This document shows positions 12,861 through 64,000 of a stretch of DNA of 64,000 nt, piece by piece. Position numbers and translations under genes: made by a program. The notes under the pieces were generated by a model. That model was not told the origin of the DNA. It saw nothing but the letters and a program-made list of their open reading frames with translations, and ran no database searches. The stretch's first letter is position 1. Each line of letters starts with the position of its first letter. Origin of the DNA: Dacryopinax spathularia (lineage: Eukaryota; Basidiomycota; Dacrymycetes; Dacrymycetales; Dacrymycetaceae); the NCBI GenBank assembly GCA_037974965.1, contig JBBPFI010000010.1, forward strand, positions 1,160,342-1,224,341. The letters run 5' to 3'.

Positions 12861-13059
12861 GAGGCAGGCTAAGGAGTAGCGGGGGAGACACCCAGTGCAC
12901 ATGGTGGTGAGGCATGGTCGCCAACAAGCACACTGGTTTACAGATCATCACTTTAGCTGTTTCCTGTCTCTGGTCCAGACCGCCGCTGATCAAGTGTATT
13001 GCTGGGCCCTGCGTGACTTGGAAATGTTGAATCCCACGAACAACGCTAGGGATCCCACA

Positions 13060-21423: not shown

Positions 21424-21790
21424 CCACGCAGGACCTTCAGGCTGCCGCACCATGTCTGCTGGGACGGGATATGGCCAACGCTAGCCCCTCTCTGGGAATC
21501 CCACCAAGTACGTGATGTATCCGACAGCCTTCAGGCTGCTGCACCATGTCCGCTGGGGAGGGACACGCCCAACGCCCATCCTGCTCTGGGAATCCCACCA
21601 AGTACGCTATGTATCCCACGACCTTCAGCCTGCTGCACCATATCCGCTGGGACGGGACATGGCCAAAGCTTATCCTGCTCTGGGAATCCCGCCAAGTACG
21701 CTATGTATCTCACGACCTTCAGGCTGCCGCACCATGTCCGCTGGGAAAGGAGATGGCCAATGCTAGCCCCTCTATGGGAATCCTAACCCT
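21424..21790 (+). repeat. Type-2 satellite segment, block 1
   Basis: About four units of a different 94-bp sequence (accttcaggctgctgcacca, gtccgctggg, ctgggaatcccaccaagta) with the same length as the main unit but little sequence in common beyond ggaatccca. It ends with gaatcctaaccctggccctg, where a short cctaaccct resembling the C-rich telomere strand joins it to the main satellite. Confidence 0.85.
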
Positions 21791-22380: not shown

Positions 22381-24894
22381 CCGAGCCGACAAGGAAGAGA
22401 ACGGCCCAGCCCGTGTTTCCGTGCAGGAATCCCACAAACAAACAACGCTAGGGATCCCACAAACATCTGGCTCCTCCACCATGCCGGCCGGGAAGGAAAC
22501 GGCCCGGCCTGCGGCCCTGCGCAGGAATCCCACCAACAACTCTAGGAATCCCACGAACAACTCTAGGGATCCCACGAACATCCGGGCCCTGCATCATACG
22601 TACCGCAAAGGCAATAACCTTGCCTGCGTCCCCGCGCAGGAATCCCACGAACAACTCTAGGGATCCCAAGAACATCCGGGCCCTGCATCATACGTACCGC
22701 AAAGGCAATAGCCCAGCCTGCGTCCCCGCGCAGGAATCCCAGGAACAACGCTAGGGATCCCATGAACATCCGGCCGCTCCACCCTGCCGGCAAGGAAGAG
22801 AACAGCCTTGCCTGCATCCCCGCGCAGGAATCCCACGAACAACGCTAGGGATCCCACGAACATCCGGGCCCTGCATCATACGTACCTCAAAGGCACCCAG
22901 CCTGCGTCCCCGCGCAGGAATCCCACGAACAATGCTAGGGATCCCACGAACATCCGGCCGCTCCACCGAGCCGACAAGGAAGAGAACGGCCCAGCCCGTG
23001 TTTCCGTGCAGGAATCCCACAAACAAACAACGCTAGGGATCCCACAAACATCTGGCTCCTCCACCGTGCCGGCCGGGAAGGAAACGGCCCAGCCTGCGGC
23101 CCTGCGCAGGAATCCCACCAACAACTCTAGGGATCCCACGAACATCCGGGCGCTCCACCATGCTGGCCAGGAAGGAAACGACCTTCCCCGCGTCTCCATG
23201 CAGGAATCCCACAAACAAACAATGCTAGGGATCCCACGAACATTGGGTCCCTCCACCGTGCCGGCCGGGAAGGAAACGGCCCGATCCCACGAACATCCGG
23301 CCGCTCCACCATGCTGGCCAGGAAGGAAACGACCTTCCCCGCGTCTCCACGCAGGAATCCCACAAACAAACAATGCTAGGGATCCCACGAACATTGGGTC
23401 CCTCCACCCTGCCGGCAAGGAAGAGAACAGCCTTGCCTGCATCCCCGCGCAGGAATCCCACGAACAACGCTAGGGATCCCACGAACATCCGGGCCCTGCA
23501 TCATACGTACCTCAAAGGCAATAGCCCAGCCTGCGTCCCCGCATCATACGTACCTCAAAGGCAATAACCCAGCCTGCGTCCCCGCGCAGGAATCCCACGA
23601 ACAACGCTAGGGATCCCACGAACATCCGGCCGCTCCACCGAGCCGACAAGGAAGAGAACGGCCCAGCCCGTGTTTCCGTGCAGGAATCCCACAAACAAAC
23701 AACGCTAGGGATCCCACAAACATCTGGCTCCTCCACCATGCCGGCCGGGAAGGAAACGGCCCGGCCTGCGGCCCTGCGCAGGAATCCCACCAACAACTCT
23801 AGGAATCCCACGAACAACTCTAGGGATCCCACGAACATCCGGGCCCTGCATCATACGTACCGCAAAGGCAATAACCTTGCCTGCGTCCCCGCGCAGGAAT
23901 CCCACGAACAACGCTAGGGATCCCAAGAACATCCGGGCCCTGCATCATACGTACCGCAAAGGCAATAGCCCAGCCTGCGTCCCCGCGCAGGAATCCCAGG
24001 AACAACGCTAGGGATCCCATGAACATCCGGCCGCTCCACCCTGCCGGCAAGGAAGAGAACAGCCTTGCCTGCATCCCCGCGCAGGAATCCCACGAACAAC
24101 GCTAGGGATCCCACGAACATCCGGGCCCTGCATCATACGTACCTCAAAGGCACCCAGCCTGCGTCCCCGCGCAGGAATCCCACGAACAATGCTAGGGATC
24201 CCACGAACATCCGGCCGCTCCACCGAGCCGACAAGGAAGAGAACGGCCCAGCCCGTGTTTCCGTGCAGGAATCCCACAAACAAACAACGCTAGGGATCCC
24301 ACAAACATCTGGCTCCTCCACCGTGCCGGCCGGGAAGGAAACGGCCCAGCCTGCGGCCCTGCACAGGAATCCCACCAACAACTCTAGGGATCCCACGAAC
24401 ATCCGGGCGCTCCACCATGCTGGCCAGGAAGGAAACGACCTTCCCCGCGTCTCCATGCAGGAATCCCACAAACAAACAATGCTAGGGATCCCACGAACAT
24501 TGGGTCCCTCCACCGTGCCGGCCGGGAAGGAAACGGCCCGATCCCACGAACATCCGGCCGCTCCACCATGCTGGCCAGGAAGGAAACGACCTTCCCCGCG
24601 TCTCCACGCAGGAATCCCACAAACAAACAATGCTAGGGATCCCACGAACATTGGGTCCCTCCACCCTGCCGGCAAGGAAGAGAACAGCCTTGCCTGCATC
24701 CCCGCGCAGGAATCCCACGAACAACGCTAGGGATCCCACGAACATCCGGGCCCTGCATCATACGTACCTCAAAGGCAATAGCCCAGCCTGCGTCCCCGCA
24801 TCATACGTACCTCAAAGGCAATAACCCAGCCTGCGTCCCCGCGCAGGAATCCCACGAACAACGCTAGGGATCCCACGAACATCCGGCCGCTCCA
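22381..24894 (+). repeat. Tandem higher-order repeat, two copies of 1257 bp
   Basis: 22,381-23,637 and 23,638-24,894 are almost identical tandem copies that both begin ccgagccgacaaggaagag. 1257 is 13.4 units, because some units are truncated (for example gtccccgc joined to atcatacg at 23,540 and 24,797). Confidence 0.9.
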
Positions 24895-24935
24895 CCGAGC
24901 CGACAAGGAAGAGAACAACCTTGCCCGCGTCCCCA

Positions 24936-25490
24936 CGCAGGACCTTCAGGCTGCCGCACCATGTCTGCTGGGACGGGATATGGCCAACGCTAGCCCCTCT
25001 CTGGGAATCCCACCAAGTACGTGATGTATCCGACGGCCTTCAGGCTGCTGCACCATGTCCGCTGGGGAGGGACACGCCCAACGCCCATCCTGCTCTGGGA
25101 ATCCCACCAAGTACGCTATGTATCCCACGACCTTCAGCCTGCTGCACCATGTCCGCTGGGACGGGACATGGCCAAAGCTCATCCTGCTCTGGGAATCCCG
25201 CCAAGTACGTGATGTATCCGACGGCCTTCAGGCTGCTGCACCATGTCCGCTGGGGAGGGACACGCCCAACGCCCATCCTGCTCTGGGAATCCCACCAAGT
25301 ACGCTATGTATCCCACGACCTTCAGCCTGCTGCACCATGTCCGCTGGGACGGGACATGGCCAAAGCTCATCCTGCTCTGGGAATCCCGCCAAGTACGCTA
25401 TGTATCTCACGACCTTCAGGCTGCCGCACCATGTCCGCTGGGAAAGGAGATGGCCAATGCTAGCCCCTCTATGGGAATCCTAACCCTGGC
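24936..25490 (+). repeat. Type-2 satellite segment, block 2
   Basis: About six units of the type-2 94-bp satellite, including a 188-bp two-unit repeat present twice (about 25,020-25,395). The same cctaaccctgg junction closes the block at 25,480. Its left part is the segment that matches the last bases before the telomere. Confidence 0.85.
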
Positions 25491-41404: not shown

Positions 41405-41620
41405 TTTAGACAGGTGCGCCAAAGTGGTCCCTTACTCTGCCACCAAAACTCTTTCCCTTTCTGCCCAAAGTGGTCCCTTACTCGCTCCAACCCTTCTCCT
41501 TTCCACCCACAGCGGTCCCTTACTCACCCCGATCCGTTCCTTACCCACTAAGGCAGTCCCTTATTCAGCGCAGCTGTTTCCTTTCCACCCAAAAGGGTCC
41601 CTTACTCATTGGCATCGCCT
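41405..41620 (+). repeat. CCCTTAC spacer repeat
   Basis: Five degenerate copies of ggtcccttactc at about 39-45-nt spacing, separated by pyrimidine-rich filler (ctttccacccaa), between two + strand genes. Confidence 0.9.
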
Positions 41621-41770
41621 CACGCCTGTTGGAGCTTGTATCTGCATCCGTACACTGTACACCATTTTTACTCAGCCCAAGTCATCTCTTCCTCTCCGCC
41701 ACCAACATCTGACTTGCGTACACTTACCGTCCCAACAACCCAATCCTCCTCCCCCAGAGTAACATCCACC

Positions 41771-42925
41771 ATGTCTCATGAACACCTTGTTCCTGCTGGG
41801 CAGCCGGACGAAGACGATCAACCTGCCCACTCCCAGCAAACCGGCCCGCAGACTGCAACCTCCTCAGCCTGCAAGCGTCCACGCCCAGCAAGTGAAGAGA
41901 TCGACACCATGTCCGACAAAATGGGAGCAAGCCCCAAGAAGAAGCTTGCAACAGCCATATCGGGTGTCGAGCCGGCCGATAATACCTTTCAGCATCCTGA
42001 TGCATCCTGCAGTCAGGTACTCACCGGTATCTCCTTTGCTCTTCCTGACCGACAAACTTCATCCTCATCTCTACTTTCAGATTTGGATCAACGTCCCATC
42101 GACGTCAACGAGCCCCTTCCTGAAGGCACCACCCTTCACGCCCCCTGTGACACCAGTCGCTCTGAAGATGGCGAGGAGCTGTTGCCTGCGATGCAAGGAA
42201 ACAAGAACTGTGAGTCGACACCCTTGCTCCCTAGACCATCCGCTCATCCACTGTTCAGCTGCCTCAAGCAACGGCACAGGCAAGAAGAGCATTGCAAGCG
42301 CCCCAACCAGCTGGCAGGAAGAAGCCAAGGCCATGAAAGCAAGGATCGAAGCCTTGGGAGAGCAGGTCAATCTGCAAGGCGAGCTGATTGACGGCCTCAC
42401 CACCCAGAACACGCTTCTGCAGCAACAGCTCATTGCTCTTAAGCAAGACAACATGGTACTGGCAGCAGAGGACGGGCAGCTCCGCGAAGACCTTCAAGAG
42501 ATGCAGACATTTGTTTTTGTAAGTCGCACCATTCACGCTATTCACCTGCTCATCTCTCTCACTTGCAGCCTAATGATGCGCTGGCCAAGATCCAACGCCG
42601 GGAGATTATCGTCAAGGGCCGCAAGTACCTCATGTCTCTCCTGGACTGGCCGGACTTCAACTGGACTTCCTTTGTTGCCCAACACCCGCGCAAAGCCACC
42701 GTCATGGACCCGCGGTTCAATACCAATCGAAGGTGGAGACGGCTCACGCCTGAGGTTGCCCACTTCCTCTACGACAACGGGCGGGACATTCGTGATATCG
42801 GGGAGCCTGCGGTGCATGCCTTTAGCACGCCTGCACTTCAAGAGGCAGCACAAGCCAGAGGCGTGCCTGCCCACACCAAGCAATACCTGCTTCACCTTCT
42901 CAACATCGTTCCTTCTTCCTTCTAG
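41771..42925 (+). CDS. Hypothetical coiled-coil protein, 351 aa
   Basis: Exons 41,771-42,209, 42,259-42,518 and 42,569-42,925 total exactly 352 codons. The N-terminal half is polar and low complexity with basic clusters (KRPRP, SPKKKL) that could act as nuclear localisation signals. A heptad-rich coiled coil follows at about 165-235 (MKARIEALGEQVNLQGELID, then LLQQQLIALKQDN). The C-terminal domain has WPDFNWTSFVAQHPRK and KQYLLHLLNI. I do not recognise it. Flanked on both sides by CCCTTAC repeats. A longer overlapping frame starting at 41,778 is a shadow: it needs both introns retained. Confidence 0.7.
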
Positions 42926-46922: not shown

Positions 46923-47526
46923 ATTGTCGACTTGTTTTCCTTTTACGTTATATAGTCCCCTCCTTAATAAGAATCCAGTTACCAATGCTAAAGTCCTTTC
47001 CCGTTCATGCCCTTGCGCGCACCTGCCCGGCCTTTCCCTAAGGGTCCCCTTGCGCGCCAGGGATAGACTTTGGTGGGAAAGGCAAGCCCTTACCCTTCCA
47101 AGCGGTCCCTTACTCGCCAAGATGATCCCTTACTCGCGCACTGTGCTCCCTTACCGGCCCAAAGGGAGATGCATCCCTCCCGCTGTCGTCGTCCGTACGC
47201 ATCCAAGAGCGCCTTCACCCGGCACCTCGACTCCCATCATCCGTCCACCCTCCGTCAGGCCGGTCGAGTCGACGAGTTGTGAATTGTCGACTTGTTTTCC
47301 TTTTACGTTATATAGTCCCCTCCTTAATAAGAATCCAGTTACCAATGCTAAAGTCCTTTCCCGTTCATGCCCTTGCGCGCACCTGCCCGGCCTTTCCCTA
47401 AGGGTCCCCTTGCGCGCCAGGGATAGACTTTGGTGGGAAAGGCAAGCCCTTACCCTTCCAAGCGGTCCCTTACTCGCCAAGATGATCCCTTACTCGCGCA
47501 CTGTGCTCCCTTACCGGCCCAAAGGG
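46807..47526 (+). repeat. Perfect 360-bp tandem duplication
   Basis: 46,807-47,166 and 47,167-47,526 are identical base for base. The unit covers the last zinc-finger coding part of the C2H2 gene, its stop codon, the 3' flank (including ttatatagtcccctcctt) and the first CCCTTAC repeats. No mismatch was seen, so it is recent or an assembly artefact. Confidence 0.95.
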
Positions 47527-48187: not shown

Positions 48188-51100
48188 ATGCCACCACCTG
48201 AAGGCCCAACTTCCTTGATCAATTGGGATACATACAGCATCGAGTCGGACGAATTCCTGGACGAAGAAGATGAGTGCGGACTTCTTCCCGCTCCGTCATA
48301 CAACCCGGCACCACTGCCGCCTCCTCCTATCGTGGAGGGGACGTGGGACGCGATGCTCCGCGAATGGAAGATCGCGTGCCTGAGGAAGGACCAAGAGAGG
48401 AAGGATAGTCTCGCAGTTGAGATTGAGCTCTTCGAGAAGCAGTTTGGTGTGAGGCGATCAACAAACCACTGGTCACTGTCAGCCATTCGACGAGCACCAC
48501 CAGCAACCACAGCACCAGCAGCGCCAGCTCCCGTTATTGATCTGTAAGTCCTTTTTGCTGGATGTATGCGCCGTTTCTGACCCAGCATCCACGTCAGAAC
48601 GGTCCCCCACGAGGAAGAAGATGAAAGTGAGATAGGGCAGGATCTCACAGGTGAGTTCCTTCTCGGACGACAAGCAGTGAGCTTATCCAATATAGATCAA
48701 TGCCGTCGTGCCCTGGTTAATCTCGGTATCAAGGACAGAAAGGAAACGTTTCGAGGGATGAGCGTTTCTCTCTTCCCTTACCAGGCCATGGGGGTAGATT
48801 GGATGGCACGGGTAGAGAGGTACTCGTCGTGCGTTGTTGTCTTTCAACGAGGAGTTCACTGCTGATTCTGGTGTGCAGTCCCAGAGGTGGCATCCTTGCC
48901 GACGAGATGGGCCTAGGCAAGACGATCCAGGTGATTGCACATCTCGTGCATACGAAGGAGGACTTTACTCCATCGTCTGGGCGCGGGCACACCCTCATCG
49001 TGGTACCTGCCAACCTCATCCTTCAGTGGGAGTCGGAGATCGACAAGCGTGCCCATGGGATCCTCAGCTGTTGGAAATGGTGGGGGGCTGGAATGAGAAA
49101 TAGTGCGGTCCTTACACTGCACGACGTTATCCTGGTGACGTACAACGGCGTGGAGGAGCAAGCTGTCCAACGCTTGCGTTGGCATCGAGTGATTCTGGAC
49201 GAAGCACACAACATCAAGTCGCCAGAGACGAACCGGACAGGGGCGTGTCTCTCTCTCTCTGCTCAACACCGCTGGTGCCTTACCGGCACACCGATCCAAA
49301 ACGACATTGAAGAGGCCTGGACGCTCATTAACTTTGTGCAAGTTCCGTTCTACCGCGATAAGGGATACTTTGACCGCAATCTTGCATGGCTGTCCAAGGC
49401 ATCGAGCGACGACGTCAAGTCGGGAATGTATGACGTCTTCCAGACGTGCATGCTGCGTCGTAGCTACAACGACACGTGCTTTGGCAAGTCGATCACCGAG
49501 CTTGAGAACAAGCAATTTGTCCGTCCGGAACTGCCGCTGTCTGAAAGGTGGCGCAAGGTGTACGACGAGCTGCAGGAGGAGGCTCGGAAACATTTCGAGT
49601 CGCAGAAGACAAAGTACGTGCTGTTCCCCTTGCAAGCGACAGCGGCTAAGCGTGACAACAGGAAAGGCAAGAAAGTGCAAGGAGAGGTCCGCAAGAAGCG
49701 TGAGTCCGGCATGCCTTGTAAGCACATATCCTGATGCTGTTTAGTGTGGGCAAGCTGTCAAAGAATGTGTCGATTTCTGGCTCATCCGGTACTCGGATAT
49801 CCGTACCATCATACCGAGGACTGGGAGGAAGAACTGGAACGGTGGAAAGCGAAGCAGGTGCGGGCGTTTGAAGAGCGCAGACAGGTGGGTCTCACTATTC
49901 AACGTGCGCCTCGACCTTGACCGTTCCGTGCAGACCAGCCGCACATGCAGCGTTTGCAAAGAGCCCGATTTGAAATCGGAAGTCACATATTGCAGTCCAT
50001 GTTGCCATATGTACTGTTATGGTATCGTGCACCATGCTCTGACGTGCCTGTGAGGAAGCTAACACATATTCAGACTGCTGGGAGAAGATGGCCGAGCAAG
50101 AACCGATGAAGTGCATAGCGTTGAAATGCCGCGACCGGGACTCGGCTCGATTTGCGGTTCCCTTGGAGGTCCTGCCATTCGCAGACACCGGCAATGAGGA
50201 CCTCGACAAGCTTAAAGCCAAGCCACATGTCAAGAAGGCGATTGACATGAACGCAATCTGGTCCGAGAAGGTGCGCTCCCTTGACAAGTGCTCTTCGTGC
50301 ATAGCTGATACGTGTACAGTTTATAGTAAGCACGGCACGATGGTCAATGGGGAACGACATGCTCACCGTCTTGTCCAGTTCATCTACGATCGTATCGAAA
50401 AGCATATGGAGGAGGACGCACTCAGGATCTCCGCATTGGAAGCGAAAGGGGAAAAGATCGGTCCTGCAGACGTCGCTTCCAAGTATATTGTCTTTTCCAA
50501 GTGGGTCAAGGTCCTCGACCTTCTTGCTTATGCATTCTCGGAGATCCCATTCTTCTCTGTTGCCCGGTGAGTCCTTGTCCGTCCGCATGTGTCCTCCCAC
50601 TGACTTGAACATCAAGTTATGAAGGTCCCATGTCGCAAGCTCAACGTGCAGAGGCGCTAAAGTCGTTTATGAAGCTTGAAGGGGGCGCAAATATCTTGCT
50701 TGTATCGATCGAGGCTGGTGGAACGGGGTACGAGCATGCTACATCCAGCCTGGCTGGCGTACTCACTCATCTCAGACTCAATCTCACACGGGCTAACATC
50801 ATCTTCAACATCGACCCACACTGGAATTATGCCAAGGAGAGACAAGGTGTGTGAACGTGCGAGCCGTGGGAGGACTCCGTCTGACAGTAACCAGCGTATA
50901 ATCGTGCACATCGCGTGGGACAGCTGAAACGTGCGTGCTTGCATCCCAGCGATGGGATCCTTTGCTGATGATATGCAGGCGTTCTGGTCTATGCCCTGTC
51001 CCACAAAGACACCATTGAAGATCGCATCGTCAAGCGCCAGAGGGACAAGGCGAAAATGATGGCGCAGGCCTTTGGTAAGGGGAAGCCTGAAGATGTCACC

Positions 51101-51190
51101 AAGGCGCTCGAGAATCTGGCCGACAGTGAGTGTCATCGTTGACAAGATAATGCACTCGCTCATCTCTGAACAGTTGTCCTCAATCGCTAA
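48188..51190 (+). CDS. SNF2-family helicase with RING finger (Rad5/HLTF-like)
   Basis: Large ATPase of the SWI2/SNF2 superfamily with a RING inserted between the two helicase lobes, the layout of Rad5, HLTF and SHPRH, which act in DNA damage tolerance as ubiquitin ligases and fork remodelers. About eleven introns join in frame. Motifs: I LADEMGLGKT; Ia LIVVPANLILQW; II ILDEAHNIK; III LTGTPIQN; RING CSVCKEPD...CSPCCHMYCYDCWEKM...CIALKC; V VSIEAGGTGLNL (restored by splicing out an intron at about 50,733-50,780); VI AYNRAHRVGQ. The end reads ENLADIVLNR and stops at 51,190. No HIRAN domain is seen at the N-terminus, so it may be a lineage-specific relative. A decayed relative is at 34,010-34,256. 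Confidence 0.88.
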
Positions 51191-51260
51191 GTCGTTTCCC
51201 TTTGCACTAGTGCATTTCCATCTAGCTGTGCATACATACATGAATGTCAGGACAGTCTAC

Positions 51261-53309
51261 CTACGCCGACCAAGGGGAGAGTGTGATCTGCTCTGGCTCG
51301 AGGCGCCCATGCCGGTTCTGAATAATGTCCTCCAAGTTCTTCTTGGCGATCCTCAACTGTGTGACTCGGGTGTCGTGATTAGGGGGGAGAAAGCTCCCCG
51401 TTGTGTGCGTCTGCCATATGGACTGGATCTTGTCCCTGGCCAGTTTAGCTTGCTCCTCAGTCGGCAGGATGCCTGATAGCTCGACCTCGTGTGCCAGCAA
51501 CCAAAAGGTGAGACAATGGAGGTCCGGATTATGGTCCGGGCTGGCTTCATCGACAGATCCCTCACGCTGGGGCACATAGGCGGTGGGATTCAATAGCATG
51601 CGGCGCAGTGCTTGAACATCCTTCATCTTCATTTTATTGGCCCTTTTGTGGATCTCGCCCAAACTTGCGGCGAAAGTGAGGAAGACGCTGTACCAAGCGT
51701 GTCGTTCGGCGTTGGTCGCCTGCAGGCCGTTTGCCTTCTCTTCCTTCATGCACTGTTCCACACGCGCGAAATCGCCGAGATCGAACAGCTTGCCCGCCGT
51801 GAGGCTTGGTGTGACCGTCCAAACAAAGTGCTTCCACCAATTGGGCTGAAGGCTGGGGGAGCGGTCAGTCATGCGGGAACGGGTTCCAGGCAAGCGACTC
51901 ACATCTGCATCCCCGCGCGGAGAGGGATATAGTACCAATTGCCCAGCGCCTTCCGCGTTTCAGCGTTGTCGGATGTGAGGTCTGTGTGGACGCCAACAGG
52001 GTCGTCGGCAAGCCGTTTGATCGTGGCTTGATTGTAGCGCACGTAGAACCAGTACTTGAGCCCTTTGAGCTGGGCAATGTAGGTGTATCGACCGCCAGCG
52101 TCGTGATGTGCATCGGTGAAGACGAGGCCCATTGAAATAAGCGCCCAAGCGGCTTCTCGCAATTCGGTGCGCTCGACCAACTCGCTCGCATATCCAAGCG
52201 ACGTGATCCGGTATTCGAGCGTTTGGTTGTAGAAGGCGCTGAAAGGACATCAGTGGGTTTCCGCAAACTTTTGCCTGCACGCACCTCAGGTAACGAGGCC
52301 AGCCCCAGGCTGGATACGGACAGTCGAGCAGGTTGAGGTACTGCTTCTTGAGGTTTGGCGGGGGTGTCTTCTTCTGCTTGCTGTTCGTCTTCTGGCTCCT
52401 CTGGTCCTCCTGCTTGTTGAACTTGCTGAAGAACTGGGACATGGTCATCGTGTCGTGCACCTGGGGCTCGGCCTCGTGCTTCTGGCTGCCCTTCTTCTTA
52501 CCAGTTGTTGGCGCGCCAGTACTGCGCAAATAGATCTTTTCCATGTCTGGTCGGCATTGAGCAGGCGGTTCTGAAGAGAGATGAGGACGGACCTAGAAAC
52601 GGATACTTGTGCTCGCTGTCCGGGTCGACCATGCCTCTTGCCGTGACCGTCTTCAAAGAGAACGACTCGGCGTCCCATGTTTCCCCCCCTGTGATGCAGA
52701 TGACATGCTGCTCAGTCATCAATTCGGCGAGTTTGTCGGGCTTGATGGGGAGCGTTTGATTGGCCTGAACTTGCAGGTGGCGAAACTTGGGATCGCGCTC
52801 GGCAGGCGCCGAGATCTCAAAGAGAAGCTCGACCCGCTGGGCGTAGTACCTCTGGAGGGTGGTCAGCAGACGGAGAGAGGCAAGGATGATTGCAGGCGCA
52901 CCATTGCCTCTGTGGCCCGCATCTCCTCCGGGGGATTCATCTTGCTCCAATCAATCTCGGTCGTCTTGGGTCCATCCCTGGTCTCGGAAATGGCACCATC
53001 GTCTTGGTCGTCTGCAGTGCAGTCCTTGTCGTCTGCAGTGCAGTCCTTGTCGTCTGCAGTGCAGTCCTTGTCGTCTGGCAGGTCGTCTGGCAGGATTGCA
53101 CCTGCCACCGGTCGAGGCACGTCGTTGTCGCCGGCTATGACAGCAGCCTTCCAGATTGCCATCGCCAGGCGCATCGCTTCATTGGGGGGATGCGGGCATA
53201 CACCCGTATGGTGATCTTGCGCCGCGCAGTTGAAGCAGTCGTAGGTGCTGGACGGTTTGAATGCGAGGGCGTCAAAGCTGCTGGTGAGTTCTGCAACCTG
53301 GTTACTCAT
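51261..53309 (-). CDS. Zinc-knuckle (CCHC) protein of unknown function
   Basis: Five exons on the - strand join as TEAM-RYYAQRV, PFLG-DMEKIYL, PRYLS-AFYNQTL and AGMQM-PNWWKHF. Near the N-terminus CFNCAAQDHHTGVC fits CX2CX4HX4C exactly, a zinc knuckle that binds single-stranded nucleic acid. Next comes a 7-residue repeat DKDCTAD, three copies (21-nt repeats at 52,996-53,062), then a basic Gln/Lys stretch and a globular C-terminal 350 residues (WALISMGLVFTDAHHDAGGRY, NWYYIPLRAG). No protease or reverse transcriptase follows, so I do not call it a retroelement Gag, though that origin is possible. Convergent with the SNF2 gene, with 70 bp between stops. Confidence 0.72.
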
Positions 53310-53361
53310 GGTTATGGAGTGCAGAAAGAGAAAGTGCTGCGAGGGAAGGGAGATGGGTGGC

Positions 53362-53535
53362 AACGAGTAAGGTAGGGCCCTTGCGGTAAGGACAGGGCCA
53401 GGGACCCCCTTACCCAGAGGGCAAGGAGATAGGACCCTTGGCAGCTAGCGCCCTTACGGTAAGGACAGGGCCAGGGACCCCCTTACCCAGAGGGTAAGGA
53501 GATAGGACCCTTACGGGTAAGGGAGCGGTTCAAGG
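53362..53535. repeat. CCCTTAC spacer repeat, both orientations
   Basis: A 64-bp unit containing ggtaaggacagggccaggga and cccccttacccagaggg is present twice (about 53,394 and 53,458). CCCTTAC and its complement GTAAGGG both occur, here between divergent genes. Confidence 0.88.
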
Positions 53536-53624
53536 TTCTTCTCCTTTCCTCACACAAACCACATCTCACGCCTGCTCCCCTCACGACGCCTTCAATTATC
53601 CATCCGAGTTACGAGCGTTCTACC

Positions 53625-54645
53625 ATGGCGCCACGAATGGCCAGTGAGTGCACGGACTGCACCAGGCCTGCCAAAACTGACTATCTACCCTAGAACCATC
53701 GGACACTCGCAAGAAGAAACAATACAAGGCGCGTTCTGCAGTGGCGGTCCCCTCCTCTATGGATCCGGCGGGCGATGAGGCTGTGGCTGAGGGTGGAGGG
53801 TCGAGCAAGAAACGGAAGAGGAAAACGGCCAACGAGCAAGAAAAAACGGCCAACGAGCAAGACGAGCAAGAATCGGCAACTAAAAGGCTCACAGGCGAGG
53901 CGGTCCTGCGAGTGCGGTCCAAGAGGAAAAACGTTGACCGGCTCTTTGGCGTCCATGATGCACACTACTGGAAGAAGAGAGAGAAGTGGAAGAGGGCGTA
54001 TGACCTGGCGTCGGATGAGATCAAGGCGAGACTGGACCCATATCACATCGTGCGTGTTTGTCCTTCTGCTCTAATTGTAGCGTCCTGATACAAATCCAGT
54101 GCACCGAATGCCTGGTCCGAGTCAAGGTCAACGACGACTTGACGTTTACCTTCCCGCCACAGCCGTGCACGATCACGCGCGATCCTTTGGCAGAAGGCGC
54201 TACTGGTGCCGTTAAGCGCAAGAACAGGCCACCTGGGGTGACATGCGAACGATGTCGGAAGAACCACATGGCCTGCAGCGCACAGGGTATGTGGTCTGGC
54301 CGCCGAGTGGTTGTGGGATCGCTGATCCATCTACCAGTCGTGCTAAAACCGTTCGGTGGAGTTCGACCGCCCATTCAGGTTCTTCGCGGATGGGATCAGC
54401 ATATTCCCCATTACCGGTTTACCTGGCTGGTCATGAAGGAACGTATAGAGGAGGGTAAAGAGCCAGACTCGGACGACGAGGACAAAAAAGGTCAGATTAG
54501 GTTGCGGGTTGGGGGGAAGGTTGTGCATCGCTATCAGGCCAGTGTGGTAGAGCCAACAGAGATTCCCCACGTAGGGCAGAAGCTTCAGAGTTTGGAAGCG
54601 CCCTTAGCGCAGCTAGTACAGGACATGGAATTGTATATGAAGTAG
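53625..54645 (+). CDS. Zn2Cys6-like cysteine-cluster protein
   Basis: Exon 1 is very short (53,625-53,643, MAPRMA) and three introns follow (donors GTGAGT, GTGCGT at 54,051, GTATGT at 54,291). The N-terminal third is Lys/Arg-rich with the duplicated piece KTANEQ. Then CTECLVRVKV and GVTCERCRKNHMACSAQ carry two CX2C units; the second resembles half of a fungal Zn2Cys6 cluster (CxRCRKxxxxC). The C-terminal part (GWDQHIPHYRFTWLVMKERI) is followed by an acidic stretch and a leucine-rich tail. It may bind DNA. I do not assign a regulator class because the six-cysteine spacing is incomplete. Confidence 0.65.
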
Positions 54646-54704
54646 TGAGGCAGCGCGATATTAGAAATGAACCCTGATTTTGCGTGGTGACTTTGTTGAC
54701 CACC

Positions 54705-56903
54705 ATGTACGATCATCTCCCTCCTTTCAACCCTCCCGACGATCCCGACCTGCGAGTTCCCTATTGGTTCAAGTACATTAGCAGTTTTGCATGTCAACCG
54801 GAGACGTATGCATGGGAGAGGCTGGCAGGAGAGGAGCGGGTGCGACGGAACTTGAATGTGCGTGCACGTTGTGAGTTGGGAGGCGGCTAATCGTGCATAC
54901 AGGCCATTGTTCGACAGTACATTACCCAAGATCGTCGCAAGGATCTGCTGGAGATGCCTCCAGCATGCTATGACCTGCTCAATCCCAAAACGGCCAAGTC
55001 GTTGCAAGCGTACTTGACCTCACTGAGGGATGCTCCGCGCTCCAAGCGTGAGAGTCGGCAGCGTCAGCAAACGGTAGAGGAGGGGGCTGCGATGGAACGT
55101 GAAGAGGGAGCGGCAGGAGTGGCAAGCGAGGAGGATGAATCCCCCAACTGTAAGAGCGCCCAGGCAGAGGTGGAGGTGCGCCAAGTCAACTTTCATCATA
55201 TCGCGCTTCATGCTGACTATGATCGCCACATAGTCGCTGGAACACGCGAACTCTGCGGCCCAGGCCGTACGCCCAAGTCTTCATCGCTTGGGTCATTTCG
55301 CTGATACATGGCACAGGCTAAGAAGGAAGCATCACAGGCCTTGGAGAAGATGCGGGCGCGTCTGGAAGAGCTGGAGAAGGAAAACAAGGCGCTGAAGCAG
55401 CCAGTCCCCGCCGACGATCGTGTGCCGGCGAGCGAGGTCACAGACCTGCAAGCAAAGCTCAGGGATGCCATTGACAAGGAATCCAGTACCCGGAAAAGCC
55501 TCGAAGCACAGGTGAAGGAGTTGAACAAGACGAACAAAGCGCTCGAAGAGCAGGCCAAACGAGCAAGGACGGAGGGGGAGAAGGAGTACAAGACCAAGTA
55601 CGAAGAGATCATGGCCCTGCTCCCTGATGTGCAGCAGCTGGTTGCCGATACCGAGGCTGAGGTCGTTGCCAAAAAGACGGAGCTCACCGAGAGGACGAAG
55701 GAGCGCGACACCGCCATGGAGGCGCTCGCCGGGACGAAGACGGAGCTGAAAGCGAAGACGAATGAGCTGAGCGATATGAAGAATGAGCTGGATGCCAAGA
55801 TAATTGAGCTGAGCGAGAGGACGAACGAGCGCGACACTGCTCGGAAGGAGCTCACCGAGAGGACGAACGAGCGCGATGCTGCCAGGGAGGACCTCGCCGA
55901 TATGAAGAAGGAGCTCGACACCGCCATGGAGGCGCTCGCCGAGACGAAGACGCAGCTGAAAGCCAAGACAACTGAGCTGAGCGAGTTGAAGACGGAGCTG
56001 AAAGCGAAGACAACTGAGCTGAGGGAAGCGCGCGACCAGAACGGCGCGCTTTCCAAGGAGATCAAAGACTTACAGCAGAAGGATGAAGCCGCTCAGCAGG
56101 AGACTGCGGTCGGTCATGCCGGCAGTCGCATGAGAGGGAGATCTAGTGCGTCGGCAGTCCTGATGCATGGGCTCATTGACTGGACGAGGGCACCATTGGG
56201 TTGGGCCCCCGAGAGGAGGAGGCCAATCCCGCAGAAACCCGCTGAGGAGCACGGCTTGTTTCAGCTTGGTCTACGGAGCACGAGTAAGCAAACAGTGGCA
56301 CCCGCTTCGACTGTGCGTGTGTTGACGGTGATCTCCAGAGGATTACGCCGATTATTTTGCAGAACTAAGACCTGGCGCGACAAAGGCGTTGGCGGAACTC
56401 AGCAAGGAGATGACCAAACTATCTCGGTGGTTATCAGCATGTGTCGATCACAGCAAGAGCATAGATCTGGAGCTCAGATATTGGGGACAAGACCCCGATA
56501 AGTACATCGAACCAAGTCCGGCTGTGCAGGCAGGGGTCGATGAATTGTTGGGCCTGAAATGGACGAGCGGCGATGGGTTGAGATCTTCAGATGAGCGGCC
56601 TATCCGTTGGTTTTTGCTTCACTGTGATCGCAGGTCATGGGTAGCTAACGATGATCATGGACAGTGACATTGCTTGCAGAGTTTCAGTTCAGACGTGTCA
56701 GGTGTAGAGATCTCCTCCGCCAGATTAACGCGGTGTCGCTCGGTCTAGGGAGAAAAATCCGTGAGGGGATTAGGGCAACGCATGAGAGCCTCGTGTTGAT
56801 GAGGTGGGCCGAGGGAGAGTGGGAGGACGAGGACCGCTTTAAATATATTAAAATCGTGAGACCTAGGTGGGAGGGCCAAGCAAGGAGAGTTGGTGTGTCA
56901 TAG
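54705..56903 (+). CDS. Long coiled-coil protein
   Basis: The ATG at 54,705 opens MYDHLPPFNPPDDPDLR. An intron with donor GTGCGT follows RRNLN, a second (GTGCGC, about 55,174-55,232) joins AQAEVE to SLEHANSAAQA, and a third (GTACGC, about 55,268-55,319) joins that to AKKEASQALEKM. From about residue 150 to 410 it is continuous coiled coil with repeating pieces ELTERTNERDTA and ELKAKTTEL. A further intron near 56,284-56,338 leads to EDYADYFAEL and LSRWLSACVDHSKS, and a last one to FQFRRVRCRDLLRQ. Similar in design to structural or tethering coiled-coil proteins; function unknown. The exact 3' splice near 56,605-56,691 is tentative. Confidence 0.68.
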
Positions 56904-56929
56904 TAATGCCAGACATGTCCATGCTCCTT

Positions 56930-57015
56930 TCGCACCCAAGGGCTTCCCTTCCCCAGAGCGTCCCTTACCCAGAGCGTCCCTTACCCAGCGCGTCCCTTAC
57001 CCAGCGCGTGCCTCG
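56930..57015 (+). repeat. CCCTTAC spacer repeat, short
   Basis: Four copies of a 17-nt unit gcgtcccttacccaga/c in perfect tandem, between two + strand genes. Confidence 0.9.
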
Positions 57016-57124
57016 TGCCTGAGGATGTTACGGGCCCAAAAGTGGCGTCCGACTGGCTGGCTGAACGGGACTCAGCAGGTTCTGTTGTCCCTTTCGCCAC
57101 AGCGATCACCTCGACAACACCGCC

Positions 57125-58128
57125 ATGGCTTGGACTCTCGCAGATCTCCAGGGGGCTAATAAGAGGCTCTACTCAACTCTTGAAATCTGGTACAGTGCCA
57201 AACCCGACGCGCTGCCAACGTTGTTCTCCAACCGCGCTATTCGAGGGGCCAAGGTGGAGGACAGGACCATGGGGGAGAATATCATGGTGGGTGGCACTCA
57301 TTCCATGGTTGCCAGATACCGAGCGCTGAGGGCCACGGCAGCAAGTGTGGTCTATGTCTGCACAGATCCAATCGGCCATTCCTAGGACATGGCGAACGGT
57401 TTTGGGAGAGTCGTCTGAGGATTGGCGAAAAGCGATCGAGGGTTGGGTCGAGGTAGATGAGGACCTGCAACGGGAGATGGAAGAGAAGTTTGGGGCGTCG
57501 TCCAAAAAGGCAAAGTCGCCTGCAGGCGAGCCGAAGAAGAAGGGGAAGAAGGTTGGAGGTGACAGTGGGAAAGCGAGCGGTGAAGCGGGCAATCCGAAGG
57601 AGACCGGTGGAGCGAGGGATCCCAAGGAGAGCGGTGGAGGGGACGATCCCAAGGGGAACACCGAGGGCGATAAGGGTGAGTGACGCGAGCTTTGAGTAGT
57701 GGACTTGGCGCTGATGAGTTATCCAAAAGAGGCAGTCATCGAGGTGGACGATCTTAATGCGACCGAGGCTAGGTCTGTGGCGATCAAGAAGATCGCCAAG
57801 CAAGGTCCGTCTTCCTTTGTGATGGGATGAGGATTCCGTCTCACGCCGATCCACAGGAATCTCTGATCTGCAGAGACTGGCCGCCGAGGTGCAAGCAGTC
57901 CTTGAAGAGCACGCGTCGTTGGCTTCAAAGCGGAGGGATATCGCCTCCAGGGCACATCAGATGTACGTGGAACTGGCACAGCTGCTGCCCAAGTGGCAAC
58001 AGGCGGATGAACTGCTGGAGGAGCAAGCAGCGAAGATGCTGAATCTGCAGGTCATGATCCAAAGGGTGTTCAACGACCTGGGTACACAGGGGGGATTGGC
58101 AGAAGGAGACCAGGATGTTGCCATGTAA
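57125..58128 (+). CDS. Hypothetical protein with Lys/Gly-rich linker and coiled coil
   Basis: Four exons: MAWTLADLQGANKRLYSTLE up to GENIM; an intron of about 80 nt; IQSAIPRTWRTVL through a low-complexity linker rich in Lys, Gly, Pro and Glu (GNPKETGGARDPKESGG); then EAVIEVDDLNATEARS; then GISDLQRLAAEVQAVLEEH, an alpha-helical segment to the stop at 58,128. No domain recognised. The layout (small helical head, disordered linker, coiled tail) suggests a scaffold or nucleic-acid-associated protein, which is inference. Confidence 0.65.
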
Positions 58129-58355
58129 GGCAATTCTTCAGAGACTGCCGATCCGAATCATGTTCTTGTTGATTCCTGTATGTACCGATCTTCAGAATGC
58201 GTACAATGATCGGCTGAGAAGACTTGTCAGCCGATCACTTGGCGCTCGCAAGACTGCTCTGGGCAATGTGCTCCTGGGCGAGCCATGCCGCGTGCCTGAC
58301 CTTGTGCATATTTAAGAGCCCGTCAGTGCGATCGTCTTATCTCCTCGTCGTCGCC

Positions 58356-59898
58356 ATGCCCCCCCACGCTGTTGGAATGATAGACGAGCTGGTCGAGGCG
58401 ATTCTCCGCCAAGTGAACCCCGGAGAGCGCCTCGCTGTTTACTCCACTTTGGCTCTCGTTTGTTCCTCCTGGTACCGAATCGCGAGGCGTCTCCAGATGG
58501 AATGGGTAGGGACGTGGTCGAGCGATCGACTCTTTTCCCAGCTGACCGAGGAGAACATCCACGTGAGTGCACATCACCGTGTCCTGTCAGCGCCCTCTTG
58601 CTCACACCGTGGTCTTATAGCAGTGGCACTTGACCCCCACGTTGTATCCTTCGTCTCGCTTTCGTTTTGTGGTCTCGCAAGGGTACGGCCTTTCGATCGA
58701 TCTTGAGGAAGACCGTGGGCTGCAAGTGCTCGGAATGTGCTGCCTCGTCCCGCGCGGCTTTTTGAACCTGCGCATTTTCCAAGCACGGCTGACGGGCGAT
58801 GCCATGCTGCGTGCGTTAGAGGCCGTTTTGCCTCGCCTTCCCCTGTTACGGAGTCTAGACTTGGATTTATGGCATCCCATCACCGGCTTCCACCTCGACA
58901 GTCCTCTCTCGGTCCGTACGCTTCTGCTCAAGACGTCTGGATTGGCCTTGTGGCAAGGCGCGCTGAGCGTGCTGGAGACATACATGCCCGCCCTCGCTTC
59001 CGTGGATCTGCTCGACCCACCGCTGGCTGTCATCGACGCAGAGCTCGGGCGCGATCGATGGAGTCGTGTATCGATCGCTCGCCTGGATAACACCTTCCTC
59101 GTCACCGGCATGTGGTCAACCCTCAAGCGATTGCAGATTGGGCCCTGGGACCGGGAAGGAGTGATCCTGACGCTGGGTTGCTTCGACTCTAGCCCCCTAC
59201 TTGAATCCCTTACGATCATCGTCCTCGACATGTTGGACGTGGAAATCGAGAGCGACGAGGAGACACGAGTGTGGCAGCCCCTCTTGGCGACGATCGCTCG
59301 GCACCGGCGTCTACAAGAACTGCTGGTCTCTATCTCGACAAGCGTGATGGCGGCTGACCTCACTGGAGAAGACTTGCTCCCACTCGTGGCCTTGAGGGAG
59401 CGGCGATGCTTCATGTTTGGGTTCTCATACGGATCATCCCATCCAGGCACAGTTGCGATGGGTCTAGCGGCGTGGGACGCGCTGCTCACCGCGTGGCCAG
59501 ACTTATACGAGCTGGCCATCTGTTGGCCGACACGCTCCCATTCGGCCCACACCGCGACGGTTCTGGGCGTCACCCTGGAGATCATCCCGATCCTCAGGGA
59601 GCGGGCAACCAGGCTCGTCCGGCTCGAGCTTGTGGTTTGCAGCAACGGTCTGCTGGAAACAGATATCGAACCGGACCGGCGGTCGATGATCATCCGCCTG
59701 CGCACAGGGCCAGTCATAAACCATTGGTCGGCCCGTGGAATCGTCCGTGCTTTCTGGCCCGACAGCGCGGTCTTTTCTGATCCGTTGTTCGAAAATGGTG
59801 ATGGAGGACGACGGGTTCAATGGCAAAACCAGCTGCAGCGCCGGGTGACCGCAGGGCTCCGTCGGTTGAGTGACTGGCATGTATTCGTAGAAGACTGA
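58356..59898 (+). CDS. F-box/LRR-like protein
   Basis: Exons 58,356-58,562 and 58,621-59,898 give exactly 495 codons. The N-terminus MIDELVEAILRQVNPGERLA, then ALVCSSWYRIARRL, fits an F-box (SKP1-binding helix pair), though it starts with DELVEAIL rather than LPxEIL. The rest alternates short hydrophobic beta strands and helices (LPLLRSLDLDLWHP, VLETYMPALASVDLLD, LQELLVSIST), like the irregular leucine-rich repeats of the many F-box proteins in agaricomycetes. The expected role is substrate recognition in an SCF ubiquitin ligase. No substrate can be named. Confidence 0.78.
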
Positions 59899-59984
59899 CA
59901 GGCATAGACACGGCAGGTAGTAATGAATCGTACATACTCGCCAATGATAGACGCGGCCCCAAAATAATGTCATTATCGCAATGC

Positions 59985-60405
59985 CTTTGCCCACCAAAAC
60001 TGGTTCCTTACGCATCTAGCGACTTCCTTACCACTCAAGCAGAGCCCTTACGGGACATTGCGCGTTCCTTACCCTCCCAAACTGATCCCTTACGCGGCAA
60101 GCGTCTTCCTTACCCACCCAAACGGGCCCCTGACGCGTCAAGGGTCTCCCTCCCTCACGAAGACTGGTCCCTTACGCATTAAGCGGTTTCCTTACCCACC
60201 AAAACTGGTCCCTTGCGCGTCAAGCGACTTCCTTACCACTCAAGCAGAGCCCTTACGTTACATTGCGCGTTCCTTACGCGCCCAAAACTGATCCCTTACT
60301 CGCCCGATGTGGTTTTCCTTTGCCACTAAAAATTAGTTCCTTTCCCACTGAAGGAAGGGAAATTCCTTCTCCGTCACAAATAGGCTTCCTTACGCGCCGA
60401 AACTG
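59985..60405 (+). repeat. CCCTTAC spacer repeat, long tract
   Basis: About a dozen degenerate units of ttccttaccmaccmaaactg and gtcccttacgcgtcaagc at about 30-nt steps. A 120-bp block (kcaagcgacttccttaccactcaagcagagccc) occurs twice (about 60,015 and 60,220). Confidence 0.9.
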
Positions 60406-60577
60406 CTTGTGTTATGGGCACACTTGGCGCGCTGTTCAGGATGGGTGAGGGTACATTGACATGGCAGAAATACAATAATGGTATATACAGCGTGTGCTAC
60501 AGGGTAACATTAATTGATGTATGATATTGTCAGAGGGGTAGATATGAAGGGGTTAATTGGGCGGTTGAACGCTGTTC

Positions 60578-61551
60578 CTAAAGCGCGTATGGATCATCCT
60601 CGTCGTCGGAAGCGGACTCGGGCTTGGGAGGTGGCTCCCACCCTTCTTCGTCGTCTGAATCGGACTCGGGTTTCGGAGGGGGCTCCCACCCTTCTTCGTC
60701 GTCCAAATCGGACTCTGGCTTGGGAGGTGCCTCCCACCCTTCTTCGTCGTCTGAATCGGACTCGGGTTTCGGAGGGGGCTCCCACCCTTCTTCGTCGTCC
60801 AAATCGGACTCTGGCTTGGGAGGGGGCTCCCACCCTTCTTGGTCGTCCCAATCGGACTCGGGCTTGGGAGGTGACTCCCACCCTGCTTGCGCCGGGGGGT
60901 CGGTGGGGAGTGCGAGGGGCTCGTCGGCGGAAGGCGACTCGGGTGGTCCATGTGGGCTCCGCGGCTGAGGGGGTGATGGAGACGGGCGGGGAGGCGATGT
61001 GCTAGGAGGAAGGACGTCGGATGGCGCGCGGTTGGCTTGTTGCAGGCGTCGGGGTCTCTTAGTCGGAGGCGAGCATCGTTCAGAATTGAGAGGGGATCGT
61101 CGACGCCGTTTGGGGCGTGGGTATGCCTTGCGCGACGTTCTTCCAGGGTTTGGCGACGAAAGAGGCGATGGAGTTGTCTCGTGTCCCGTACCGTCCATGT
61201 CGACGTCCTCGCTGGACGGCGTGTGCATCATGTCGGGCTGATCGTTGGTCATGTCCCCGAGAGCCGGTGGGTGGGAGGCAGTTGAGGGTGCTTGCTGGAG
61301 CTGCGCTTGTCCATCAGCCATGAGCTCAAAGGATGATAGAGTGGTGCGTACCATGTCATCCGAGGGTGTGAGGCTGTCTCTCTGGACTGCTGTGGCGGCG
61401 AGGGCGAAAGAGGGGAGGTGCATGATGAAGGGTCGCTGTAAGCCAAGGAAGGATAGTCAGGAAGTCGTTAGCAAAGCCCATGGCCTGGAGAGAGAATGGA
61501 ACTTACCGGGTCGAAGCATTCGGGTGGGACGTCGTCAATGTCGTCCTCCAT
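60578..61551 (-). CDS. Pro/Glu/Asp-rich protein with 16-residue repeats
   Basis: Exon 1 is 61,551-61,507 (15 codons, MEDDIDDVPPECFDP) and exon 2 61,435-60,578, with a 71-nt intron; the join reads FDP-RPFIMHLP. The first half is Ser/Pro-rich with basic nuclear-localisation-like clusters (RPKRRRRSP, TKRPRR). The second half is six tandem copies of a 16-residue unit EEGWEPPPKPESDSDD, encoded by 48-nt repeats. It is probably disordered throughout. The opposite strand is also open because of the repeat, but the spliced ATG exon supports the - strand. Confidence 0.68.
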
Positions 61552-62462: not shown

Positions 62463-62598
62463 GCATCCTACAGGGGTCTATGGGTGAGTACGGATAGGGG
62501 TTGAGGGTAGGGAACGCCGAAAATGCGGCCCGAAACCTCCCTATCTCCCTATCTGTAATACCCATCACCTCCCCGCAGGCAAGCTCGTGATGGGTTGG
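62463..62598 (+). repeat. Subtelomeric module A, telomere-proximal copy
   Basis: Matches 10,651-10,786 over 136 bp with roughly nine substitutions and the same orientation. The satellite array starts about 40 bp further on. Confidence 0.85.
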
Positions 62599-62637
62599 GC
62601 CGCTTTTTCGCTTAGCACAGCCCCTTCACCGGGCCCA

Positions 62638-63765
62638 GCATCATACGTACCGCAAAGGCAATAACCCAGCCTGCGTCCCCGCGCAGGAATCCCATGAACA
62701 ATGCTAGGGATCCCACGAACATCCGGGCCCTGCATCATACGTACCTCAAAGGCAATAACCCAGCCTGCTTCCCCGCGCAGGAATCCCACGAACAATGCTA
62801 GGGATCCCACGAACATCCGGGCCCTGCATCATACGTACCTCAAAGGCAATAACCCAGCCTGCTTCCCCGCGCAGAAATCCCAGGAACAGCGCTACGAATC
62901 CCACGAACATCTGGCCGCTCCACCGTGCCAACAAGGAAGAGAACGAAGGCAATAGCCCAGCCTGCATCCCTGCGCAGGAATCCCACGAACAACGCTAGGG
63001 ATCCCACAAACATCTGGCTCCTCCACCGTGCCGGCCGGGAAGGAAATGGCCCAGCCTGCGTCAATCCCACCAACAACGCTAGGGATCCCACGAACATCCG
63101 GGCCCTGCATCATACGTACCTCAAAGGCAATAACCCAGCCTGCGTCCCTGCGCATGAATCCCACGAACAACGCTAGGGATCTCACAAACATCTGGCTCCT
63201 CCACCGTGCCGGCCGGGAAGGAAACGGCCCAGCCTGCGGCCCTGCGCAGGAATCCCACCAACAACTATAGGGATCCCACGAACATCCGGCCACTCCACCA
63301 TGCTGGCCAGGAAGGAAACGACCTTCCCCGCGTCTCCACGCAGGAATCCCACGAACAACGCTAGGGATCCCACGAACATCCGGGCCCTGCATCATACGTA
63401 CCTCAAAGGCAATAACCCAGCCTGCATCCCTGCACAGCAATCCCAGGAACAACGCTAGGGATCCCACGAACATCCGGCCGCTCCACCCTGCCGGCAAGGA
63501 AGAGAACAGCCTTGCCTGCGTCCCCGCGCAGGAATCCCACGAACAACGCTAGGGATCCCACGAACATCCGGGCCCTGCATCATACGTACCTCAAAGGCAA
63601 TAGCCCAGCCTGCGTCCCCGCATCATACGTACCTCAAAGGCAATAACCCAGCCTGCGTCCCCGCGCAGGAATCCCACGAACAACGCTAGGGATCCCACGA
63701 ACATCCGGCCGCTCCACCGAGCCGACAAGGAAGAGAACAACCTTGCCCGCGTCCCCACGCAGGAC
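62638..63765 (+). repeat. Telomere-proximal 94-bp satellite array, about 12 units
   Basis: Same unit, variant half-units and orientation as the internal array, including the truncated gtccccgc/atcatacg unit at 63,617. Confidence 0.95.
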
Positions 63766-63846
63766 CTTCAGGCTGCCGCACCATGTCTGCTGGGACGGGA
63801 TATGGCCAACGCTAGCCCCTCTCCGGGAATCCCACCAAGTACGTGA
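63766..63846 (+). repeat. Truncated type-2 satellite unit adjoining the telomere
   Basis: accttcaggctgccgcacca through ccaccaagtacgtga, then TTAGGG repeats at once. The internal copy at 24,942-25,022 differs by one base up to that point and continues with tgtatccgac. Confidence 0.9.
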
Positions 63847-64000
63847 GGGTTAGGGTTAGGGTTAGGGTTAGGGTTAGGGTTAGGGTTAGGGTTAGGGTTA
63901 GGGTTAGGGTTAGGGTTAGGGTTAGGGTTAGGGTTAGGGTTAGGGTTAGGGTTAGGGTTAGGGTTAGGGTTAGGGTTAGGGTTAGGGTTAGGGTTAGGGT
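63847..64000 (+). repeat. Telomere repeat (TTAGGG)n
   Basis: About 25.7 perfect copies of GGGTTA with the G-rich strand running 5' to 3' toward the right edge, as at a right chromosome end. It runs to the edge of the window, so its true length is not visible. Confidence 0.97.

What the first reader, a model, noticed from the sequence alone, without database searches (positions are those of the whole stretch)
63525..64000. Telomere begins in mid-unit of a satellite that is continued intact inside the chromosome
The last ~320 bp before the telomere match the internal array at about 24,700-25,022 almost base for base, including a rare truncated unit. The match stops exactly where TTAGGG starts (…aagtacgtga/gggttaggg versus …aagtacgtga/tgtatccgac). 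This is what de novo telomere addition at a break in the satellite would leave, with ga/gg at the junction. The alternative is that the internal block was copied from another chromosome end.
Basis: seen in the sequence. Interest (0 to 1): 0.8.

Follow-up and report, generated by a model that had tools for sequence, protein, structure and literature searches.

The report
Broken, re-capped fungal chromosome ends
This chromosome end looks like one that broke inside a repeat array and was capped with a new telomere, and most other capped ends read in the same (probably fungal) genome show the same kind of scar, a known process seen here at many ends at once.

Summary
In detail: window 63,482-63,846 matches 24,660-25,024 at 363 of 365 bases, and the match stops where TTAGGG starts.

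The window is the right end of contig 10 (C10R) of a 29.2-Mb, 24-contig genome. I read the 40 ends of contigs 1-20: 25 carry TTAGGG repeats. Only C5R and C14L share a junction. For 20 of the 25, the sequence meeting the telomere has a copy elsewhere; in every case read past the junction (not C12R) that copy runs on. C2L is cut inside an open frame that is uncut on C10R. Three different satellites are cut in mid-unit.

Best reading: terminal truncation plus de novo telomere addition, known from Magnaporthe/Pyricularia (PMC7367193, PMC8381367).

Against overreading: such identity is common inside this array (37 of 109 control segments), seed evidence is weak, the genome search misses satellite copies, and no reads or sister strains were available.

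The parts
63847..64000 (+). Telomere, perfect TTAGGG repeat to the contig end; the A at 63,846 fits both the satellite and the telomere phase (1-nt seed)
63482..63846 (+). Last 365 bp before the telomere, 363 of 365 identical to 24,660-25,024, ending inside a B-type satellite unit
62629..63846 (+). Terminal block of the 94-bp satellite; 94-bp pieces are 86-100% like different parts of the internal array
24660..25024 (+). Internal counterpart of the last 365 bp
25025..25461 (+). Intact continuation: further B-type units that the terminal copy lacks
21432..21783 (+). Other block of B-type units, also on contig 10
13178..26548 (+). Internal 94-bp satellite array (A-type units with two B-type blocks)
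62463..62607 (+). 145-bp subtelomeric element just inside the terminal satellite; 94% copy at 10,651-10,795; kin at many contig ends
62380..62466 (+). Fragment 93-94% like part of four subtelomeric RecQ-type helicase frames
60578..61423 (-). 281-aa open frame (no Pfam match), uncut here; its copy on contig 2 left end is cut by that end's telomere at the base equivalent to window 61,097
51009..61097 (+). Block shared with contig 2 left end (95.7-97.6% up to 60,114; 90% with indels over the last 0.9 kb; the last 345 bp identical), running up to the contig 2 telomere
41419..41973 (+). Sequence 89-95% like the end of contig 9 right arm, whose match stops here, 11 nt before its TTAGGG tract

Best explanation
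The right arm of contig 10 once continued through a second, subterminal block of the 94-bp satellite. The end was lost (by a break or by telomere failure with erosion) inside a B-type unit, after ...GTACGTGA, and a new telomere was added there, probably by telomerase from a one-base seed (A|GGGTTA). This is one instance of a pattern seen at most telomeric ends read. Subtelomeric blocks, many of them shared between chromosome arms in one orientation (satellites, RecQ-type helicase genes, a 145-bp element), are cut at scattered points, and each cut is capped by TTAGGG, in a few cases after some irregular bases. Shown: the anatomy, the truncation relative to intact copies, and the scatter of junctions. 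Inferred: telomerase as the agent, and loss of a distal part rather than copying up to that point.
For: The match ends at the telomere and the intact version continues as ordinary B-type units. The unit type being cut was found only on contig 10. Twenty of 25 telomeric ends have a counterpart: 14 at >=97% (C1L, C2L, C5L, C7R, C8R, C9L, C10L, C10R, C11L, C11R, C12L, C12R, C13R, C14R), two that share one junction in mid-unit of a 174-bp satellite (C14L, C5R), one in a 161-bp satellite (C13L), and C2R (88-91%), C9R (95%), C17R (89%, minisatellite). C11L has four intact copies that continue with the same bases, C14R three, C9L, C13R and C7R two (small differences between copies for C14R and C7R). 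Of the counterpart copies that reach the junction, 22 of 22 point towards their nearest contig end, as truncated subtelomeres should; left out are satellites and the C17R minisatellite, the dispersed repeats (C2R, C12R), the unplaced contig 21 and partial matches. C2L is cut inside a 281-aa frame that is uncut on C10R. C14R, C7R and C5L are cut at three points of one block.
Against: No reads, parents or sister strains, so the event was not observed. A seed of >=1 nt is found in 10 of 13 junctions against 43% expected (p 0.014), but summed seed length is not above chance (p 0.34) and three junctions begin with irregular bases. Five of 25 ends (C6R, C8L, C15R, C16L, C18R) showed no close counterpart for their last 250 bp. 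The terminal satellite block is a mosaic, 84% alike over its whole length to the best internal stretch, so later exchange within the array cannot be separated from the original state. The genome search did not return the known internal copy, its own query region or C13L itself, so its silence about satellites is weak.
Confidence: 0.8

Rival explanations
1. Capture from inside: an eroded end that already held satellite invaded the internal array of its own arm, copied about 365 bp (24,660-25,024), stopped, and was then capped.
For: The last 365 bp match one internal place over their whole length, while the rest of the terminal block matches different places piece by piece. Duplication of internal sequence at a decapped end is documented in Magnaporthe oryzae (passages of PMC7367193; of PMC8381367).
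Against: 37 of 109 internal control segments of 365 bp have an equally good copy elsewhere in the array. Counterparts of the other ends all lie telomere-ward (22 of 22 tallied), whereas the Pyricularia paper reports a number of captured pieces deep inside or inverted.
Confidence: 0.12
2. Copying of an entire end from another chromosome together with its telomere, so the junction was born elsewhere.
For: This seems to have happened once here: C5R and C14L share the junction, the last 900 bp before it at 100%, and the same distance (about 11.2 kb, within 1 bp after allowing for tract length) to a shared site.
Against: None of the 24 other telomeric ends has this junction, and none of the 39 other ends read holds either satellite unit type in the stretch held.
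Confidence: 0.03
3. Assembly chimera or misjoin.
For: The assembly has rough ends: C10L runs into 598 bp of almost pure G and A after its last TTAGGG, and contig 3 carries subtelomeric pieces in both orientations near its right end.
Against: Twenty of 25 telomeric ends show a comparable junction against a copy elsewhere, and 24 tracts measure 73-251 bp. The terminal satellite is only 1.2 kb beyond non-satellite sequence.
Confidence: 0.03
4. A telomere-targeted retroelement whose 5'-truncated copies are capped by telomere repeats.
For: C14R, C7R and C5L stop at different points of one same-orientation block; C12R stops about 310 bp past what looks like the LTR of an LTR retrotransposon.
Against: C10R ends in a satellite and C2L in an open frame without Pfam match. 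Twenty open frames, nine at other ends and eleven in the window, gave no reverse transcriptase match in Pfam at E <= 0.01. The C12R element is dispersed over many contigs in both orientations.
Confidence: 0.02

Closest known systems
Terminal truncation with de novo telomere formation in Magnaporthe/Pyricularia oryzae (Rahnama et al. 2020, PMC7367193; Rahnama et al. 2021, PMC8381367; passages seen)
   Same: Telomeres joined to scattered points in subterminal DNA with copies elsewhere; nested truncations; short seeds or none (19 of 24 rDNA events with 1-4 nt seeds there); telomere junctions often private to one strain (331 of 689); telomere-linked helicase genes.
   Different: There shown between strains and in culture; here inferred within one assembly. 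Here three satellites are cut in mid-unit. No MoTeR-like element was sought beyond Pfam scans of 20 open frames.
Chromosome ends of Neurospora crassa (Wu et al. 2009, Genetics; recalled, not held)
   Same: As recalled: telomeres attached directly to mostly unrelated sequences.
   Different: As recalled, no shared subtelomeric blocks; here most ends read share blocks.
Subtelomeric RecQ helicase families (Agaricus bisporus var. burnettii, PMC7473861, passages seen; Ustilago, Magnaporthe and Metarhizium as cited in its reference list)
   Same: RecQ-type frames concentrated near chromosome ends; 19 subtelomeric gene models there, nine likely full length.
   Different: Used here only as a marker of subtelomeric blocks; completeness of the genes was not examined.
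Telomere healing in Saccharomyces cerevisiae (PMC10055226) and Plasmodium falciparum (PMC5550746) (titles and abstract starts seen in search listings)
   Same: A new telomere at a break truncates the chromosome.
   Different: In yeast, hotspot sequences of addition are described; no telomere-like sequence is evident in the bases before the C10R junction.

Membership tests
De novo telomere addition at a terminal truncation | Telomere repeat joined directly to non-telomeric sequence | tested here: met
De novo telomere addition at a terminal truncation | An intact copy continues past the junction | tested here: met
   C10R; continuation read for other ends; not read for C12R
De novo telomere addition at a terminal truncation | Junction position differs between ends | tested here: met
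   299 of 300 end pairs unlike; C5R = C14L is the exception
De novo telomere addition at a terminal truncation | Short in-phase seed at the junction | tested here: inconclusive
   10 of 13 with 1 nt against 43% expected, p 0.014; summed length p 0.34
De novo telomere addition at a terminal truncation | Junction absent from parent or sister strain; telomerase dependence | not testable with these tools
   no reads, no relatives held
Capture of an internal sequence by a failed end | Donor lies internally, in either orientation | tested here: inconclusive
   22 of 22 tallied counterparts of other ends point telomere-ward, against capture as the general route; for C10R itself donor and end share arm and orientation, so it is not excluded there
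Telomere-targeted retroelement (MoTeR type) | Terminal sequence belongs to a reverse-transcriptase element | tested here: not met
   C10R ends in a satellite; no reverse transcriptase in 20 frames scanned

The most novel reading that the evidence does not exclude
In this organism truncation and re-capping is the normal life of a chromosome end. Almost every telomere is a healed scar at an arbitrary base, needing hardly any seed, so that subtelomeres act as a shared, expendable buffer refilled by exchange between arms and trimmed by repeated breaks.
Probability: 0.3. Interest if true: 0.6.

Novelty: new member of a known kind. Interest (0 to 1): 0.48.

Why it matters
Because the arms share blocks, one assembly lets one see what lay beyond most of its telomeres: 20 ends (19 distinct junctions) with counterparts, including three satellites cut in mid-unit and a frame cut on one chromosome and uncut on another. 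If true, it suggests that the chromosome-end turnover described in blast fungus is not tied to one kind of sequence, and it makes seed use by telomerase countable in a new genome.

Tried and rejected
Near-identity of 99.5% as proof of a recent copy: rejected, 37 of 109 control segments do as well. Old shared junction: rejected for the 25 ends read. Donor from another arm: not supported. Strong seed preference: not shown. The genome search proved unreliable for satellites: it did not return the internal copy at 99.5%, its own query region, C13L itself in the typed query (the other 11 of 12 ends were returned at 100%), or C14L itself in a 9.9-kb query meant to measure what C5R shares (uninformative). 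I therefore checked B-type units in the held sequence as well. Species was not identified; a paper search under a guess at Microbotryum found nothing usable. Searches touching earlier reports of such ends gave the Magnaporthe/Pyricularia papers as closest; I claim no absence from print beyond those listings. Pfam scans of 20 open frames (nine at other ends, eleven in the window) named Pex13 with SH3, two kinase-like frames, and below-cut-off matches to OrsD and coiled-coil families. The Rfam scan of window, L057 and L058 found only bacterial-type LSU rRNA, on L057.

Full report
What was checked. The window is G000:C10:1160342-1224341, the right end of contig 10 of a 29,246,034-base assembly in 24 contigs. 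The first 10 kb of contig 19 (146,554 bp) carry bacterial-type LSU rRNA and a frame whose best solved relative is NADH dehydrogenase subunit 2 (entry 7zm7), so I take contig 19 for a mitochondrion. With Pex13 in the window, and frames of contig 20 that I recognise from memory as Serinc and proteasomal Rpt2, I take the organism to be a fungus; that is inference.

The observation. Counting back from the junction, 363 of 365 bases are the same in 63,482-63,846 and 24,660-25,024. Inside, the satellite goes on with B-type units (TGTATCCGACGG...) that recur in the same array; at the end TTAGGG follows at once. The stretch combines a rare partial unit (43-bp period) and an A-to-B unit change. The next best ungapped places in the internal array reach 81% and 66%. 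Near-identity is nevertheless common in this array: 37 of 109 control segments of 365 bp have an equally close copy at least 94 bp away in it.

Where the block comes from. A genome search for B-type units returned four matches, all on contig 10: the two internal blocks (one of them in two matches) and the cut unit at the end. The contig 2 array matches the internal query no further than the A-to-B change. In held sequence, the contig 2 array (C2:32,820-42,515) shows only short or about 70% matches to the B units, and none of the 39 other ends read holds A or B units. The genome search is not a safe proof of absence for satellites: it missed the 99.5% internal copy and its own query region. The terminal satellite (62,629-63,846) is a mosaic of 94-bp pieces 86-100% like different internal places. 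It is preceded by a 145-bp element; of 29 other listed copies on placed contigs, 28 point telomere-ward, the exception being C3:2613752 (short hits on the opposite strand of the same copies left out). Before that lies a fragment of a subtelomeric RecQ-type frame.

Other ends. I read 20 left ends (10 kb) and 19 right ends (1 kb) of contigs 1-20, plus C10R in the window. Of these 40 ends 25 carry at least two tandem TTAGGG in the last kilobase. Twenty-four tracts measure 73-251 bp; at C10L 598 bp of almost pure G and A follow the last TTAGGG. Among 300 pairs of last 60-bp stretches only C5R and C14L agree; the best other pair scores 29.5 of 60. Those two are identical over the last 900 bp. The site homologous to the C8R end lies 11,252 and 11,283 bp from their tips, a difference explained by tract length. 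So one end was probably copied whole; the 11 kb were not compared base by base, and the search meant to do so returned neither end.

Counterparts. C2L matches the window up to 61,097, the last 345 bp identical, then becomes telomere after a few irregular bases; C10R runs on for 2.7 kb, and the 281-aa frame there is uncut. Junctions read base by base against a continuing copy, with the best copy over the last 200-300 bases: C1L, C2L, C5L, C7R, C8R, C9L, C10R, C11L, C11R, C12L, C13R and C14R at 97.2-99.7%, C9R at 94.8% and C17R at 89.2%. Second copies are lower for some, for example 96.3% for C7R and 95.8-97.6% for three of the four of C11L. C10L diverges from a 98% copy on contig 11 at ...CTTGG|GTTAAGG against ...CTTGG|ACCAGAT. 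C14L (and C5R with it) begins its telomere in mid-unit of a 174-bp satellite, C13L in mid-unit of a satellite with 161-bp spacing (other arrays up to 89%). C2R ends at a TTAGGG-like tract inside a dispersed element. C12R ends inside a dispersed repeat with 16 other full-length matches and paired copies 6.5 kb apart, which looks like an LTR retrotransposon; its continuation was not read. That is 20 of 25 ends. For their last 250 bp, C6R, C15R, C16L and C18R gave no other match and C8L only 67-70% kin; C15R and C16L have short partial matches further in.

Direction. Leaving out the satellites and the C17R minisatellite, the dispersed repeats (C2R, C12R), the unplaced contig 21 and partial matches that do not reach the junction (one of them, 82 bp between C7R and C3R, is inverted), 22 of 22 counterpart copies point towards their nearest contig end (lists of that tool are lower bounds). 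So do 11 of 11 RecQ-type matches in frames of 995 aa or more. This is what truncation of shared subtelomeric blocks predicts, and not what capture of arbitrary internal pieces predicts.

Seeds. For 13 junctions one in-phase base precedes the telomere in 10; simulated blunt joins give at least one in 43% (binomial p 0.014), but summed length is not above chance (p 0.34), and C8R, C9L and C2L begin with irregular bases. Not in that count: C9R, C12R, the satellites C13L and C14L/C5R, C2R, which starts at a telomere-like tract, and C10L, which has GG in phase. This fits telomerase starting on almost any end but does not prove it.

Comparison. Magnaporthe oryzae shows terminal truncations healed at 1-4-nt seeds in 19 of 24 rDNA events, and duplications of internal sequence at decapped ends (PMC7367193, passages). 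Across Pyricularia strains 331 of 689 telomere junctions were private and nested truncations were mapped (PMC8381367, passages). The present ends fit that process. I therefore file the finding as a new member of a known kind. The notable part is the breadth visible in one assembly.

Noticed in passing
window 10,908-12,874: Minisatellite-like units of about 30-65 bp, many with GTTAGGGTTAG or close variants, lie just inside the internal satellite: telomere-like motifs about 51-53 kb from the tip.
   Followed up: no
C2R (L060) and C11:149582-150100 (L086): A dispersed element carries its own TTAGGG-like tracts; the C2R telomere starts at one of them, so it may offer ready-made seeds for capping.
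   Followed up: partly
C5R and C14L (L063, L052): Two chromosome ends share the telomere junction and, by equal distance to one shared site, probably about 11 kb; a whole end seems to have been copied. Contig 21 holds a further piece.
   Followed up: partly
contig ends, e.g. C14:32370, C13:1066818, C6:1805564, C18:8358, C12:1105094: Subtelomeric RecQ-type helicase family, eleven matches in frames of 995-1754 aa, all pointing telomere-ward.
   Followed up: partly
C10L (L048, first 598 bases): Almost pure G and A (on the end-oriented strand) outside the telomere: probably an untrimmed sequencing artefact.
   Followed up: no
C3 right end, about 2,577,000-2,613,975: Subtelomeric pieces occur in both orientations near this contig end, which carries no telomere: perhaps an inverted duplication or an assembly error.
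   Followed up: no
window 46,807-47,526: A 360-bp direct duplication at 100% identity inside a 361-aa open frame.
   Followed up: no
window 3,972-4,812 and 43,337-44,178: Two protein-kinase-like frames, 83% alike and inverted relative to each other, on either side of the satellite array.
   Followed up: no
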